Shown here one piece after another: positions 48,772 to 54,484 of a stretch of 64,000 nucleotides of DNA (positions are counted from its first letter, which is position 1; each line of letters opens with the position of its first letter). The stretch comes from Actinomycetes bacterium (GTDB taxonomy: Bacteria > Actinomycetota > Thermoleophilia > Solirubrobacterales > 70-9): contig BOKP01000001.1 of assembly GCA_016861045.1 (NCBI GenBank), positions 871,529 to 935,528 on the forward strand, in the 5' to 3' direction. Under the pieces are notes generated by a model. It had not been told where the DNA came from. It did not search any database and worked only from the letters and a program-made list of their open reading frames with translations. The position numbers and the translations under genes were made by a program.

Positions 48772-48857
48772 GCTCGCGCCGCGTGATCTTCGCGCCCCGC
48801 CCGGGTTCAGGTCGGTGTGAGGGCAACCGATCCCCGATTGGAGAAGGAGCTACCAAC

Positions 48858-49265
48858 ATGACCGACCACGAGTTCCCCGAGGAGGAGCGCCGCCTCTACG
48901 ATCGCCTCGCGATCGTCGGCGTGGTGCTCCTGCTGGCGGCCTTCCTGCTCGGCGTCGCGAGCGTCACCTCCGGCTTCGCGCAGGCGTCCGGCGACGACGT
49001 CGTCGCCAAGCGCGATGACGGCGGCGGCGATGACGGCCACGAATCCGGCGACGACGACGATGACGACGACGACACCGGAACGAGGGCGACCGCCACCGGC
49101 ACCACCCAGGGCACGGGTCCGTCCAACACGGCCACCAACGACACGGCGACCGGGACCAAGACCGGCTCCGGCGGCGACACCGCCACCGGCACCACCCAGG
49201 GCACGGGTCCGTCCAACACGGCCACCAACGACACGGCGACCGGGACCCGGACGAAGGGCCGCTGA
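48858..49265 (+). CDS. Single-pass membrane protein with Asp-rich and Thr-repeat outer segment
   Basis: 135 residues. A short charged N-terminus (TDHEFPEEERRLYDRL) precedes one membrane helix (about 17-38). The outside part is low complexity: Gly/Asp-rich with a run of eight Asp (about 66-73), then Thr/Gly/Ser/Asn-rich, built partly from a tandem duplication of 23 codons (ATGTTQGTGPSNTATNDTAT). Good Shine-Dalgarno (GAGAAGGAG) 8 nt before the ATG. No known family. The Thr-rich tail could be glycosylated; the acidic run resembles the tail of the nearby sigma factor. It lies between polA and the kinase gene. Confidence 0.75.
   Translation: MTDHEFPEEERRLYDRLAIVGVVLLLAAFLLGVASVTSGFAQASGDDVVAKRDDGGGDDGHESGDDDDDDDDTGTRATATGTTQGTGPSNTATNDTATGTKTGSGGDTATGTTQGTGPSNTATNDTATGTRTKGR
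49089..49157 (+). repeat. 69-bp direct repeat, copy 1
   Basis: Identical base for base to 49179-49247; 90-bp period, in frame within the acidic/Thr-rich membrane protein gene. Confidence 0.9.
49179..49247 (+). repeat. 69-bp direct repeat, copy 2
   Basis: Exact copy of 49089-49157, separated from it by 21 bp. The absence of any silent difference suggests recent duplication or ongoing gene conversion. Confidence 0.9.
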
Positions 49266-49396: not shown

Positions 49397-50227
49397 GTGC
49401 TCACGAAGCTCGGCGGCGGCCATCGCTACGAGGCCTACCTGGCCTGGGACGGCCATCTGCGGGCCACGGTCGTCGCGAAGCTGGTCCGGCCCGGACGGGT
49501 CGCCGAGGCGGACACCCTGCGCGGGCTGGCCGAGGAGGCGGAGGCGCTGGCCGCCCTCAACCACCCGGTGATCGTCCGCGGCTTCGGGGCCGAGCTCGCA
49601 GGGGCACGCCCCCAGCTCCTGCTCGAGCACCTCGAGGGCCCGCGCCTGTCGAGCCTGATCCGCCGCTACGGGCCGCTCGGCCGCGAGCAGCTCGCCCCGC
49701 TCGCGATCCAGCTCGCGGCCGCGGTCCACTACATGCACGCCGAAGGCTGGGTGCACCTCGACATCAAGCCGGCGAACGTGATCATGGGCGCGCCGCCGCG
49801 ACTGATCGACCTCAGCGTCGCCTGCCGCGCCGAGGTTGCCGCGACGATCGATCAGCCGATCGGCACGGATTCCTACATGGCGCCCGAGCAGTGCCTGCCG
49901 ACCGAGCTCGGCCCGGTCGGGCCGGCCGCCGACGTCTTCGGGCTCGGGGTCACGCTCTATCGCGCGGCCACCGGAGAGCGGCCGTTCGAGCGCGGCAGCG
50001 CCGAGGCCGGCCACGACCGGCCCGAGGAGCGCTGGCCGCAGCTCTCGCTGCCGGCGCTTCCGCTCGCGGCGGAGCTGCCCGCTCCGGTGGCGGCCGCGAT
50101 CGAGTCCTGCCTGGCGTACGAGCCGGCGGCGCGACCGGCGCCGGCGGAGGTCGGTGAGGCCTTCGAGGCGATGCTCGAAGCCCTGCCGAAGCCGCGCCTG
50201 AGCCGGATCAAGCCGCGCTGGAGCTGA
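49397..50227 (+). CDS. Divergent serine/threonine protein kinase
   Basis: At least 276 residues, kinase domain only, no membrane helix. Conserved: VVAKLV (ATP Lys), HLDIKPANV (catalytic Asp, Lys, Asn, with HLD for HRD), MAPEQC (APE) and DVFGLGVTLY. Altered: the glycine loop reads GGGHRYEAY, losing the third Gly, and DFG is DLS (IDLSVAC). The metal-binding Asp is kept, so activity is plausible. The GTG at 49397 is the only standard start, yet in-frame codons upstream back to 49262 read like coding sequence (GFEEGDEILPGRS), and a CTG at 49262 overlaps the previous stop (CTGA). A non-standard start is therefore possible. Confidence 0.8.
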   Translation: MLTKLGGGHRYEAYLAWDGHLRATVVAKLVRPGRVAEADTLRGLAEEAEALAALNHPVIVRGFGAELAGARPQLLLEHLEGPRLSSLIRRYGPLGREQLAPLAIQLAAAVHYMHAEGWVHLDIKPANVIMGAPPRLIDLSVACRAEVAATIDQPIGTDSYMAPEQCLPTELGPVGPAADVFGLGVTLYRAATGERPFERGSAEAGHDRPEERWPQLSLPALPLAAELPAPVAAAIESCLAYEPAARPAPAEVGEAFEAMLEALPKPRLSRIKPRWS

Positions 50228-50337: not shown

Positions 50338-51570
50338 CTAGTCCTCGTCGTCCTCGTCGTCGGAACCGGAGCCGGAGCCCGAGTGGTCGTCGTCGTCCGG
50401 CTCCTCCGGCTCCTCCGGCTCCTCGGGCTCCTCGGGCTCCTCCGGCTCGTCCGGCTCCTCCGGCTCCTCGAGCTCGACCCGATCGTCGTCGTCGAAGTCG
50501 TCGTGGCCGCCGCCGGAAGACCCGGAATGCCCGCCGCCTCCCCCGCTTCCGCCCCCGCCTGACGATTCCGAGGATCCGCCACCGGAGCCCGAGCGCCCTT
50601 CGTTGCGACCGCCCTCGCTTCCGTCGCGTCGCTCCTCCCCGGTTTCGTCGCGCCGATCGTCGCCGTCCTCGCCGGCCGCCTCGCGACGTCGCTCTCCCGC
50701 CGACCCGGCGACCGGCTCGGAGCCGTCGCCGCCGCGCCCGCTCCTCGACCCGGGGCCGGTGGCGGCGCTGGCGGTCTCGGGGCCGGCCGCGGGACGCTCG
50801 TCGCCGGAGCGGCGATCCTGGATCGCCTTGCCGGCGCCCACGGCCACGACCGCGGCCGTCAACCCGACCGCGGCCTTGCCCAGGGCGCCGCCCATCAGCG
50901 CACCGCCTCCCGCCCCCGCGACCCCCGCACCGGCGCCGCCGGCGCCCGCCGCCCCGGCGGCCGCGGCCGTGGCCGCGTCCTCGAGCAGCCAGCGCAGCAC
51001 CGGCAGCGGCACCAGGGCCCCGAGCGCATCTCGCAGCGTCGTCCGCGCCCGGAAGATGAGGCCGCGGACCGCGGTCGGGCTCGTCTCCAGCTTCGCCGCG
51101 ATCTCGGCGTGCCCGACGCCCTCCATCTCGCGCATGACGAGCGCCCGCCGCTGTGATTCCGGCAGCGCGCAGATCGCGTCGACGAGGCGCTCGAGCTCCT
51201 CCCGCTGCTCGGCGGTGGCGGGTACCCGCCGGCCCCCGTGCTGCTCGGGGTCGAGCTCGCTCCACGCCGGCTCGTCGCGAACGGTGTTCAGGGCCCGGTT
51301 GCGGACGATCGCGAACAGCCATGGCCGCAGCCGGATCTCGCGCTCGTCGGCCGCGAGCGCGTCATGGGCCCGCATCAGGGCGGCCTGCACGACGTCCTCG
51401 GCCCGGGCGGCGCCGGCGATCGCGCCGGCGAACGCCACCAGCGGCCCGCGGTAGCGGCGCACGATCTCGTCGAACGCGGGCCCGTGCCCCTCGCGCACCA
51501 GACGCACGAGCCGATCGTCGGACTGGGCGGCGAGCGCGCGCCGCGCGATCGGTCTCAGCGGGGTCGCCAT
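50338..51570 (-). CDS. ECF sigma factor fused to a membrane anchor and acidic tail
   Basis: 410 residues. Sigma region 2 (about 18-90; FDEIVRRYRGPLVAFA, RPWLFAIVRNRALN) and region 4 (about 120-180; ALPESQRRALVMREMEG, SPTAVRGLIFRARTTLRD) form a complete ECF factor. A Gly/Ala-rich stretch with a membrane helix (about 230-250) follows, then some 160 residues of Arg/Asp/Gly/Ser-rich sequence, eight EEP/DEP units and a DDEDDED end, presumably outside. No separate anti-sigma gene is adjacent. The ATG at 51570 is preferred over 51630 because GATAAT lies 9 nt before it. Convergent with the kinase, divergent from pspC. Confidence 0.88.
   Translation of the reverse strand: MATPLRPIARRALAAQSDDRLVRLVREGHGPAFDEIVRRYRGPLVAFAGAIAGAARAEDVVQAALMRAHDALAADEREIRLRPWLFAIVRNRALNTVRDEPAWSELDPEQHGGRRVPATAEQREELERLVDAICALPESQRRALVMREMEGVGHAEIAAKLETSPTAVRGLIFRARTTLRDALGALVPLPVLRWLLEDAATAAAAGAAGAGGAGAGVAGAGGGALMGGALGKAAVGLTAAVVAVGAGKAIQDRRSGDERPAAGPETASAATGPGSRSGRGGDGSEPVAGSAGERRREAAGEDGDDRRDETGEERRDGSEGGRNEGRSGSGGGSSESSGGGGSGGGGGHSGSSGGGHDDFDDDDRVELEEPEEPDEPEEPEEPEEPEEPEEPDDDDHSGSGSGSDDEDDED
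50398..50469 (-). repeat. Eight 9-nt units encoding EEP/DEP
   Basis: Tandem GAG-GAG-CCG-type repeat in the sigma factor tail, with only silent changes and one Glu-to-Asp change. Prone to slippage. Confidence 0.8.
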
Positions 51571-51585: not shown

Positions 51586-51771
51586 GTGGCCGTCGTCCTC
51601 GGGCCCGAGCCGTTGCAGCCATGCTCCCACAACCCCGGCCGCTCCCGAAGATCACGGTCGCGGGCCCCCGGGACCGACACGGGACCGATCGGGGTCATCC
51701 CGGATGGACGGGCGGAGCCGGCACCGGCAGCCTGGATGGGTCAGATCCCATCCGATCAGGAGGCCTACGAG

Positions 51772-52785
51772 ATGAACGAGAGATACGAGGATCGAGGCGC
51801 CGGGCCCGATGGCGGGCCCGCTCCGGACGAGGTGCCGACGACCCCGGCGCCGGAGGTGCGCGAGTCGCCGCGGCGCTTTCTGCGCAGCCGCGACGACCGG
51901 GTCGTCGCCGGCGTCTGCGGGGGGCTCGGCCGCTATTTCGACATCGATCCGGTGATCGTCCGCATCGCGTTCGCGGTGACGGTGCTGTTCGGGGGGATCG
52001 GGATCCTCGCCTACCTGGCGGTGGCGCTGTTCGCGCCCGCCGACGACGGCACCGGGGCGCCGGCCGAGGGCGGGCGCGGGCGCGAGATCGCCCAGATCCT
52101 CGGCGTCGTCGCGATCGCGCTCGTCGCGATCGCCGGCTTCGGGGTGCTCGCCGTCGGCGCGGCCGTCCTGACCGGCCTCGGGTTCGGCCTGCCGGTCGCC
52201 GCGGTCGTCGTGGTGATCGGGGTCGCGCTCGCGGCCCTGTCGTTCCGCGGCGGCGCCCGCTGGCTGCTGGTGCCGGCGCTGGCGCTCGCGCTCGGGGTGG
52301 GGGTGGCCGCCGCCTCCGACCTCGACCTCGACGGCGGCATCGGCAAGCGGGACCACCGGCCCGTGTCGGCGGCCGCGATCCCCGCCGGGGGCTACGAGCT
52401 CGGCGCCGGCCGCCTCGCGGTCGATCTCCGCGACATCGGCTGGGGAGCCGAGCGGACGCTCGAGCTCGACGCCCGCGTCGGCGTCGGCCAGCTCGTCGTC
52501 GCGGTCCCCGCAGATGTATGCGTCGAGGCCGATGTCCACGCCGGCGCCGGAGACATCCTCGTCGCCGGCCAGCGCGCGGACGGGTGGGACGTCGACCTGG
52601 CGACCGGCGAGGGGGCGCGGGCGGCGCCGCGGCTCGTGCTGGACGCCGGCGTCGACCTCGGGCAGGTCACGGTCGTCAACGACGATGACGCCGAGATCGG
52701 CGTTCGCGGCTGGGACCGGGACGGCGACGACTACGGCGACGCCGCGGCGATGAGAGCAGCGAACGCGAGGGCCTGCCGGGCGTGA
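51772..52785 (+). CDS. PspC-domain membrane protein with LiaF-like C-terminus
   Basis: 337 residues. A PspC domain (about 35-90; FLRSRDDRVVAGVCGGLGRYFDIDP, then a membrane helix) is followed by two to three more helices (about 105-190) and a soluble beta-rich C-terminal domain (about 205-330) resembling DUF4097/LiaF C-terminal domains. It starts a three-gene unit with overlapping histidine kinase and response regulator genes. In Bacillus and other actinobacteria such PspC/LiaF proteins modulate a LiaRS-type envelope-stress system. Good Shine-Dalgarno before the ATG. Confidence 0.86.
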   Translation: MNERYEDRGAGPDGGPAPDEVPTTPAPEVRESPRRFLRSRDDRVVAGVCGGLGRYFDIDPVIVRIAFAVTVLFGGIGILAYLAVALFAPADDGTGAPAEGGRGREIAQILGVVAIALVAIAGFGVLAVGAAVLTGLGFGLPVAAVVVVIGVALAALSFRGGARWLLVPALALALGVGVAAASDLDLDGGIGKRDHRPVSAAAIPAGGYELGAGRLAVDLRDIGWGAERTLELDARVGVGQLVVAVPADVCVEADVHAGAGDILVAGQRADGWDVDLATGEGARAAPRLVLDAGVDLGQVTVVNDDDAEIGVRGWDRDGDDYGDAAAMRAANARACRA

Positions 52786-53840
52786 GCCGGGAGCGCGTCG
52801 ATCGGGTCTCGCTGGTCGCCGGCGTGGCCGTCGTCCTGCTCGGCGCCGCGCTCTGTCTCGATCAGCTCGACCTGGTCGCGCTCGACCCCGACCTCTTCCG
52901 CGACCTCGGGCTCTGGTGGAGCGCCGCGATCGTCGCGCCGCTCGTCCTCGCCGCCGCCGGGGCCGCCCTGCTCTGGGCGCTCTCCGGCGGCGGGGACCCG
53001 GCGCCGCGGTCGCGGCCGGCCGCCGCGGTCGTCCCGCGCGACAGTCCGGCGTCTGCGCCCTCTCCCGCGGCCCGCCTCCGCGACCTCTACCGGGGCGGTT
53101 TCGGGGTCGCGCTCGTGGTCGGGGCCGGGCTGCTCTTCCTCGCCCGTGTCGATGCCCTCGGCGGTGCCCGTGACGCCGCCTTCACCGCGATCGTCGCCGT
53201 CCTCGCGCTGGCTCTGATCCTCGCTCCCTTCATCTGGCGGCTCGGTCGCAGCCTCGCCGCCGAGCGGGCCGAGCGGATCCGCTCCCAGGAGCGCGCCGAG
53301 ATGGCGGCGCACCTGCACGATTCCGTGCTGCAGACGCTGACGCTGATGCAGAAGCGAGCCGGCGATCCGCGTGAGGTCGCGGCGCTGGCGCGGCGGCAGG
53401 AGCGCGAGTTGCGCGGCTGGCTGAGCTCGGGCCGCACCGCCGCCGCGGGCGGCCTCGCGGCCGCGTTGCGGGCGGCGGCGGAGGAGGTCGAGGATGCCCA
53501 CCGGGTCGAGGTCGACGTGGTGACCGTCGGCGATTGCGCGCTCGACGAGGGCGCCGGGGCGCTCGTGGCCGCGACCCGCGAGGCCCTCGTCAACGCCGCC
53601 AAGTTCGCCGGTGACGCCGGCCCGGTCTCGGTCTACGCCGAGGTCTCCCCAGAGCTGATCGAGGCCTACGTGCGCGACCGCGGCGCCGGATTCGACGTCG
53701 AGCGGATCGGCGGCGACCGCCACGGGGTACGAGAGTCGATCGTCGGCAGGATGCGCCGCCACGGCGGCGATGCGACGATCGCCTCGATGCCCGGCTCCGG
53801 AACCGAGGTCGCGCTCTCGCTGCCACGGGAGGCGCGATGA
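52782..53840 (+). CDS. Sensor histidine kinase (HisKA_3 / NarL-partner type)
   Basis: 352 residues. Four membrane helices in two hairpins (about 10-30, 45-66, 105-122 and 128-150) with little outside sequence. Dimerisation/phospho-acceptor box AAHLHDSVLQTLTLMQKR (about 175-192). HATPase: EALVNAAKFA (N box), DRGAGFD (G1) and GSGTEVALSLP (G2). Short external loops suggest an intramembrane-sensing kinase like LiaS. The GTG start overlaps pspC (GTGA) and the stop overlaps the regulator gene (ATGA). Confidence 0.93.
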   Translation: MSRERVDRVSLVAGVAVVLLGAALCLDQLDLVALDPDLFRDLGLWWSAAIVAPLVLAAAGAALLWALSGGGDPAPRSRPAAAVVPRDSPASAPSPAARLRDLYRGGFGVALVVGAGLLFLARVDALGGARDAAFTAIVAVLALALILAPFIWRLGRSLAAERAERIRSQERAEMAAHLHDSVLQTLTLMQKRAGDPREVAALARRQERELRGWLSSGRTAAAGGLAAALRAAAEEVEDAHRVEVDVVTVGDCALDEGAGALVAATREALVNAAKFAGDAGPVSVYAEVSPELIEAYVRDRGAGFDVERIGGDRHGVRESIVGRMRRHGGDATIASMPGSGTEVALSLPREAR

Positions 53841-54484
53841 GCCCGCGGCCGACGATCGTGATCGTCGACGACCACGCGCTCTTTCGCAGCGGCGTGCGCT
53901 CCGAGGTCGAGGGCCTGGTCGAGGTCGTCGGCGAGGCGGGATCGGTGGAGGAGGCGGTGCGCGTGATCGCCGACCGCCGCCCCGATGTCGTCCTGCTCGA
54001 CGTCCACATGCCCGGCGGCGGCGGGGTGGAGGTGATCCGGCGCGTCGCCGCGACCGATCCCGGGCAGCGCTTCCTCGCCCTCTCGGTCTCCGACGCCGCC
54101 GAGGACGTGATCGCCGTGGTCCGCGCCGGCGCGCGCGGCTACGTCACGAAGTCGATCTCCGGCGAGGATCTCGCCGCGGCGGTCGGCCGGGTCCGCGACG
54201 GCGATGCGGTCTTCTCGCCGCGTCTCGCCGGGTTCGTGCTCGACGCCTTCGCCGGCACCGTCCCCGCCGCCGAGGTCGACCCGGAGCTCGATCAGCTGAC
54301 GATCCGCGAGCGGGAGGTCCTGCGGCTGATCGCCCGCGGCTACATGTACAAGGAGGTGGCGCTGCGGCTCGACATCTCGCCGCGCACGGTCGAGGCCCAC
54401 GTCAGCGCCGTCCTCCGCAAGCTGCAGCTCTCGAACCGGCACGAGCTCAGCCGCTGGGCGGTCGAGCGGCGCCTGCTCGACTGA
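53837..54484 (+). CDS. LuxR/NarL-family response regulator
   Basis: 215 residues. Receiver domain: acidic pair Asp11/Asp12, phospho-acceptor Asp55 in VLLDVHMPG, Lys in VTKSIS. C-terminal LuxR-type helix-turn-helix (about 150-212; LTIREREVLRLIARGYMYKEVA and SPRTVEAHVSAVLRKLQL). Coupled by ATGA overlap to the kinase gene. Expected target: its own operon and envelope genes, by family analogy. Confidence 0.95.
   Translation: MSPRPTIVIVDDHALFRSGVRSEVEGLVEVVGEAGSVEEAVRVIADRRPDVVLLDVHMPGGGGVEVIRRVAATDPGQRFLALSVSDAAEDVIAVVRAGARGYVTKSISGEDLAAAVGRVRDGDAVFSPRLAGFVLDAFAGTVPAAEVDPELDQLTIREREVLRLIARGYMYKEVALRLDISPRTVEAHVSAVLRKLQLSNRHELSRWAVERRLLD

What the first reader, a model, noticed from the sequence alone, without database searches (positions are those of the whole stretch)
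50338..51570. ECF sigma factor tethered to the membrane with a long acidic outer tail
Regions 2 and 4 are complete, then a membrane helix and about 160 residues of disordered, finally very acidic sequence with eight EEP/DEP units. No anti-sigma gene is adjacent. The factor could be held inactive at the membrane and released by proteolysis, with the tail sensing cations, wall polymer charge or stretch. ECF factors with C-terminal membrane extensions are known in some groups, but this tail is unusual.
Basis: partly seen in the sequence, partly recalled or inferred. Interest (0 to 1): 0.65.

Follow-up and report, generated by a model that had tools for sequence, protein, structure and literature searches.

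The report
Tailed ECF sigma with exported partner
A soil-type actinobacterium encodes a gene-switching sigma factor that carries its own probable membrane anchor and a long floppy acidic tail; the same build is normal across its order, and the factor appears to switch on only itself and one exported acidic protein.

Summary
The gene is real: 410 aa at 51570-50338 (-), with sigma regions 2 and 4, no cysteine, a hydrophobic stretch at 232-251 and a 159-aa tail with 8 EEP/DEP units. The membrane helix is marginal by hydrophobicity, although its leading lysine is kept in 51 of 52 sequences. The tail is not unusual: full-length relatives across Solirubrobacterales have long low-complexity tails; only the EEP run is local, a 9-bp repeat expansion. 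They lack the zinc finger that paralogs keep, so this is not ECF52/53 as described. New here: the factor travels with a gene for an exported acidic, often Ca- or His-type protein. Both genes carry the same ECF-like promoter, CGTGA-N16-GKGTY: 34 of 36 upstream regions, spacer always 16. A strict version occurs exactly twice in the window's 2.7-Mb genome: before the sigma gene and before an exported Asp/Thr-rich protein gene, 48858-49265. Best reading: an anti-sigma-less module in which a probably membrane-tethered sigma, once freed, drives itself and one exported protein. Anchoring and release are untested.

The parts
50338..51570 (-). ECF sigma factor gene, 410 aa (P0001)
   Evidence: found in 20 genomes of the same family, own included
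51271..51465 (-). sigma region 2 (residues 36-100)
   Evidence: Pfam PF04542, 40.2 bits, cut-off 24
51034..51192 (-). sigma region 4 (residues 127-179)
   Evidence: Pfam PF08281, 52.1 bits, cut-off 25.7
50950..51009 (-). Conserved Pro-headed helix after region 4 (residues 188-207, PLPVLRWLL...); P188 invariant in 52 sequences
50818..50877 (-). Lys-headed hydrophobic segment, probable but marginal membrane helix (residues 232-251)
   Evidence: predicted helix 233-252 with pLDDT about 50
50341..50817 (-). Low-complexity, acidic, probably disordered tail (residues 252-410)
   Evidence: composition conserved in relatives, sequence not
50396..50469 (-). 9-bp tandem repeat encoding the EEP/DEP run, 8.2 copies
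51630..51656 (-). ECF-like promoter of the sigma gene, CGTGATCTTCGGGAGCGGCCGGGGTTG, 59 nt before the ATG
48782..48808 (+). Same promoter before the exported acidic protein gene, CGTGATCTTCGCGCCCCGCCCGGGTTC
   Evidence: conserved before the homologs in G005 and G015
48858..49265 (+). Exported or membrane-anchored Asp-rich / Thr-rich repeat protein (135 aa), predicted second target of the sigma factor
   Evidence: (N-terminal hydrophobic helix -2.9 kcal/mol)
49397..50227 (+). Ser/Thr protein kinase, downstream of the above on the same strand and possibly co-transcribed; not conserved next to the sigma gene in relatives

Best explanation
This is a member of an order-wide group of Solirubrobacterales ECF sigma factors in which the sigma domain is followed by a Pro-headed helix, a Gly/Ala-rich linker, a Lys-headed hydrophobic segment and a long disordered tail, with no zinc-finger anti-sigma domain. 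The sigma domain most likely sits on the inner face of the membrane, held by the hydrophobic segment, with the tail in or across the wall. When it becomes free or active (cleavage in or near the segment is the likeliest route; inferred), it directs RNA polymerase to CGTGA-N16-GKGTY promoters. There are very few of these: its own gene, giving positive feedback, and one gene for an exported acidic protein. In most relatives of the same family that protein is a secreted Ca-loop or His-rich protein encoded next to the sigma gene; in this genome it is the Asp/Thr-rich protein at 48858-49265. Shown by sequence: domain make-up, conservation, partner linkage, shared promoter, about two strict sites per genome. 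Inferred: that this sigma reads that promoter, membrane anchoring, tail outside, release, envelope or cation signal.
For: Orthologs, mostly at the polA locus, across the family with the same architecture. K at the head of the segment in 51 of 52; P188 invariant. Tails in all full-length members. Exported partner next to the sigma gene, same strand, in 15 of 19 scorable loci of the family and in at least 14 loci of two other families, in either gene order. Promoter pair with a 16-nt spacer in 34 of 36 upstream regions, other spacers 0-1, reverse strand 1. Exactly 2 strict sites in the 2.7-Mb genome, reversed control 0. In 50 family genomes 61 hits against 3 in the reversed control; by my count from that table 42 hits in 20 genomes with the sigma factor and 8 in 23 without it. 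The motif precedes the partner in several loci of the other families, where the partner is the first gene. Homologs of the window's exported protein occur in relatives G005 and G015, each with the promoter.
Against: The hydrophobic segment is weak for a single membrane span, and the flank after it carries more K/R than the flank before (2.0 against 1.0), which does not support tail-out topology. AlphaFold gives that helix only pLDDT about 50 and no firm place against the sigma domain. The EF-hand-type partner of relatives is missing from this genome, so the function may have drifted here. One family locus (L194) has neither promoter copy. Motif ends CGTGA and GKGTY were fixed in the search, so only the spacer and the inner bases are independent evidence.
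Confidence: 0.55

Rival explanations
1. The hydrophobic segment is not inserted. The protein is cytoplasmic and the acidic tail acts in cis, for example by competing with DNA for the basic face of the sigma domain or by marking it for turnover.
For: Segment scores between soluble and membrane controls; no positive-inside signal; low helix confidence; tail strongly acidic in this species.
Against: A Lys-headed run of about 19 mostly uncharged residues is kept in 51 of 52 sequences. 10 of 51 tails are not net acidic and one more distant relative has a strongly basic one (L052), so an acidic DNA mimic cannot be the common function.
Confidence: 0.25
2. The factor is membrane-bound, but the tail is a passive wall-space filler without sensing function; the EEP run is slippage drift.
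For: EEP run coincides with a 9-bp tandem repeat; tail sequence unconserved while composition is kept.
Against: Tails of 159-372 aa are retained in every full-length member, which passive filler does not explain well.
Confidence: 0.3
3. The adjacent Ser/Thr kinase controls the sigma factor by phosphorylation, as proposed for kinase-linked ECF groups.
For: Kinase gene about 110 bp from the sigma gene's 3' end.
Against: No homolog of this kinase near the sigma gene in the other loci of the family that were examined; the only weak match, 29% identity, lies near another ECF gene (L053).
Confidence: 0.06
4. The shared promoter is read by another sigma factor, and the tailed ECF only happens to be one of its targets.
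For: No binding or transcription data; other ECF genes are present in the genome.
Against: The motif is enriched only in family genomes that hold this sigma factor, and only two strict sites exist in this genome.
Confidence: 0.15

Closest known systems
ECF52 / ECF53 / ECF48 sigma factors (e.g. SCO4117 of Streptomyces coelicolor; PMC5826349, PMC8999054)
   Same: Actinobacterial ECF with a C-terminal extension holding a membrane helix and a low-complexity outer part; no separate anti-sigma; release by proteolysis proposed; positive autoregulation suggested for SCO4117.
   Different: No zinc finger (no Cys at all), no Pro-rich plus carbohydrate-binding module, Gly/Ala-rich weak membrane segment, linked exported partner gene.
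Zinc-finger-bearing ECF paralogs of Solirubrobacterales (L002, L029-L033, L201)
   Same: Sigma 2 and 4, Pro-containing hydrophobic helix, Gly/Ala-rich linker, Lys-headed hydrophobic segment, long low-complexity tail.
   Different: They keep HxxxCxxC and have Pro/Thr-rich tails; they form a separate clade. One member of that clade (L203) has itself lost the zinc finger.
SigI-RsgI of Bacillus subtilis (PMC10128001, citing Brunet et al. 2022)
   Same: A disordered region of a membrane protein postulated to sense wall integrity, with intramembrane cleavage freeing a sigma factor.
   Different: RsgI is a separate anti-sigma protein; here everything is on one chain.
IutY (ECF243) of Pseudomonas putida (PMC8999054)
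   Same: Sigma factor and membrane regulator fused in one chain and freed by proteolysis (shown for IutY).
   Different: IutY is part of an iron-siderophore surface signalling system; no such parts here.

Membership tests
ECF sigma factors (sigma-70 group 4) | Regions 2 and 4 present, no region 3 | tested here: met
   Pfam r2 and r4_2 above cut-off, nothing between; best solved relatives are sigma-E and other ECFs
ECF52/ECF53/ECF48 | Zinc-finger anti-sigma domain after region 4 | tested here: not met
   No HxxxCxxC, no Cys in the protein; the same test finds it in paralogs
ECF52/ECF53/ECF48 | One or two membrane helices | tested here: inconclusive
   Conserved but weakly hydrophobic segment
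ECF52 | Pro-rich linker and carbohydrate-binding module | tested here: not met
   No Pfam domain after region 4
Kinase-linked ECF groups (ECF43, ECF59-62 type) | Conserved adjacent Ser/Thr kinase | tested here: not met
   Kinase next to this sigma gene only in the window genome among the loci examined
ECF41/ECF42/ECF56 (soluble C-terminal regulatory domain) | SnoaL-like or TPR-type domain | tested here: not met
   No such Pfam match
Any numbered ECF group of the 2021 reclassification | Score above the group HMM | not testable with these tools
   Group HMMs and the paper are not held
RsgI-type disordered wall sensor | Separate membrane anti-sigma with outer disordered region | tested here: not met
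   Single fused chain; no anti-sigma neighbour

The most novel reading that the evidence does not exclude
An anti-sigma-free one-chain transmembrane transcription switch: a sigma factor whose own exported disordered tail is the sensor and whose whole regulon is itself plus one exported acidic, metal-loop-type protein, forming a closed feedback module spread through an entire bacterial order.
Probability: 0.35. Interest if true: 0.75.

Novelty: new variant of a known kind. Interest (0 to 1): 0.55.

Why it matters
If right, it shows that a sigma factor can be wired to the envelope with no anti-sigma domain at all, which strips one-component ECF signalling to its minimum. It also gives a ready test: a defined promoter, a defined target gene and a tail that can be cut or swapped. 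Signalling in Thermoleophilia is little studied, and the two-gene regulon makes the output directly readable.

Tried and rejected
Kinase as conserved regulator: not next to this sigma gene in relatives. EEP units as a conserved sensor: species-specific repeat. EF-hand-type partner in the window genome: absent. First genome-wide promoter pattern, ending GTGT, found nothing because the -10 reads GGGTT here; corrected. Claim that the zinc finger was lost once in the ancestor: the tree leaves the deep branching open, so direction is not shown except for L203. AlphaFold as a test of anchoring or of docking of the Pro-headed helix: too low confidence after residue 188. Pfam for the partner: only TSP3_bac in some members, the rest unmatched. 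Plasmid collection: only generic ECF matches.

Full report
What is there. The ORF 51570-50338 (-) encodes 410 aa. Regions 2 and 4 are complete. After region 4 come a conserved Pro-headed helix (188-207), a Gly/Ala-rich linker, a Lys-headed hydrophobic segment (232-251) and a 159-residue tail rich in Gly, Ser, Asp and Glu that ends in eight EEP/DEP units and a D/E-rich end. The genome is a 2.7-Mb, 97% complete assembly. Contigs of the two same-genus relatives match by length records named Conexibacter sp. and Solirubrobacterales bacterium, so the window is from Solirubrobacterales, class Thermoleophilia.

The membrane helix. The same is true of nearly all relatives, while zinc-finger ECF fusions of Micromonospora and Nocardioides have stronger helices. 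But the Lys head is kept in 51 of 52 sequences and the next 19 residues hold on average 0.5 charges. I take it as a probable, unusually weak membrane helix. Gly/Ala-rich weak helices are typical of intramembrane protease substrates (general knowledge, not tested), and the genome has two site-2-protease and three rhomboid matches, but so do all 14 control genomes, so this is permissive only.

The tail. Full-length relatives in three families of the order have tails of 159-372 aa; 41 of 51 are net acidic and 8 have at least 20% D+E. Sequence is not conserved, composition is. The EEP run is a 9-bp tandem repeat; same-genus relatives have only short EEP or PEVEEPE stretches instead. So a long low-complexity tail is the family trait and the EEP run a local elaboration.

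Relation to zinc-finger fusions. Two paralogs in the same genome (L002, L003), and most members of a separate clade across the order, carry HxxxCxxC between region 4 and the same kind of linker, Lys-headed segment and tail. Pfam does not call the zinc finger in L002, so this rests on the motif and its conservation. In a tree of the sigma domains the zinc-finger-less proteins fall into one clade for the window's family and one for two other families, both well supported, with the deep order unresolved. L203 sits in the zinc-finger clade without the finger, so loss has happened at least once. The window protein does not meet the ECF52/53 description given in PMC8999054 and PMC5826349; whether the finger-bearing paralogs do was not tested further.

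The partner. Next to the sigma gene in 15 of 19 scorable loci of the window's family (L194 found by profile), and in at least 14 loci of two further families, lies a gene on the same strand for an exported protein: signal peptide, Asp-rich Ca-type loops (TSP3_bac in some members) or a His-rich stretch, then a small conserved domain with an acidic low-complexity insert. The gene lies after the sigma gene in the window's family and often before it in the others. It is absent from the window genome. In its place, between polA and the sigma gene, is a different exported Asp/Thr-rich protein (48858-49265), with homologs in three other genomes.

The promoter. Upstream of the sigma genes I saw CGTGAYYTTC...GKGTT. 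Allowing spacers of 8-30, 34 of 36 upstream regions of sigma and exported-protein genes in this family hold CGTGA-N16-GKGTY, with spacer 16 every time; the reverse strand gives one chance pair. The window genome has exactly two strict sites, before the sigma gene and before the Asp/Thr-rich protein gene, both with identical spacing. In G005 and G015 the homologous exported gene also has it. Over 50 family genomes the pattern occurs 61 times against 3 for its reversal, and the locus check puts most of those examined at sigma or partner genes. In several loci of the other families the motif precedes the partner, which is then the first gene. A promoter that follows the operon head, and appears where the sigma factor is present, is the usual signature of an autoregulated ECF.

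Mechanism. Most likely: sigma held at the membrane by its own segment, tail outside, release on an envelope signal, positive feedback, and production of one exported acidic protein that may buffer, bind or report the same condition. Steps shown: architecture, linkage, promoter. Steps inferred: everything about location, signal and release. The main rival is a cytoplasmic protein with an inhibitory tail.

Novelty. Membrane-fused ECFs with proteolytic release are a known kind. The lack of an anti-sigma domain, the order-wide spread, the exported partner and the two-site regulon were not found in the papers I could read, but the 2021 ECF classification is not held, so a numbered group may already exist.

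Noticed in passing
L036:8801-9448 and equivalents in 28 further loci: Uncharacterised exported protein family (Ca-type Asp loops or His-rich stretch plus small conserved domain) linked to tailed ECF genes; mostly unmatched in Pfam.
   Followed up: partly
48858-49265: Exported Asp-rich / Thr-rich repeat protein with the sigma-type promoter; homologs in G005, G015 and G014.
   Followed up: partly
49397-50227: Ser/Thr kinase with divergent catalytic motifs, near this sigma gene only in the window genome; its best PADLOC matches are generic kinase models (mad6, PD-T4-6).
   Followed up: partly
51772-54484: PspC-domain protein, histidine kinase and LuxR-type regulator, divergent from the sigma gene; also near it in the two same-genus relatives but in another order, so the locus has been rearranged.
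   Followed up: partly
L203 (G013:C12:137500-141000): Member of the zinc-finger ECF clade that has lost the zinc finger while keeping linker, hydrophobic segment and tail.
   Followed up: partly
L092: More distant actinobacterial ECF with a similar weak Gly-rich segment and an Asp/Arg-rich tail.
   Followed up: no
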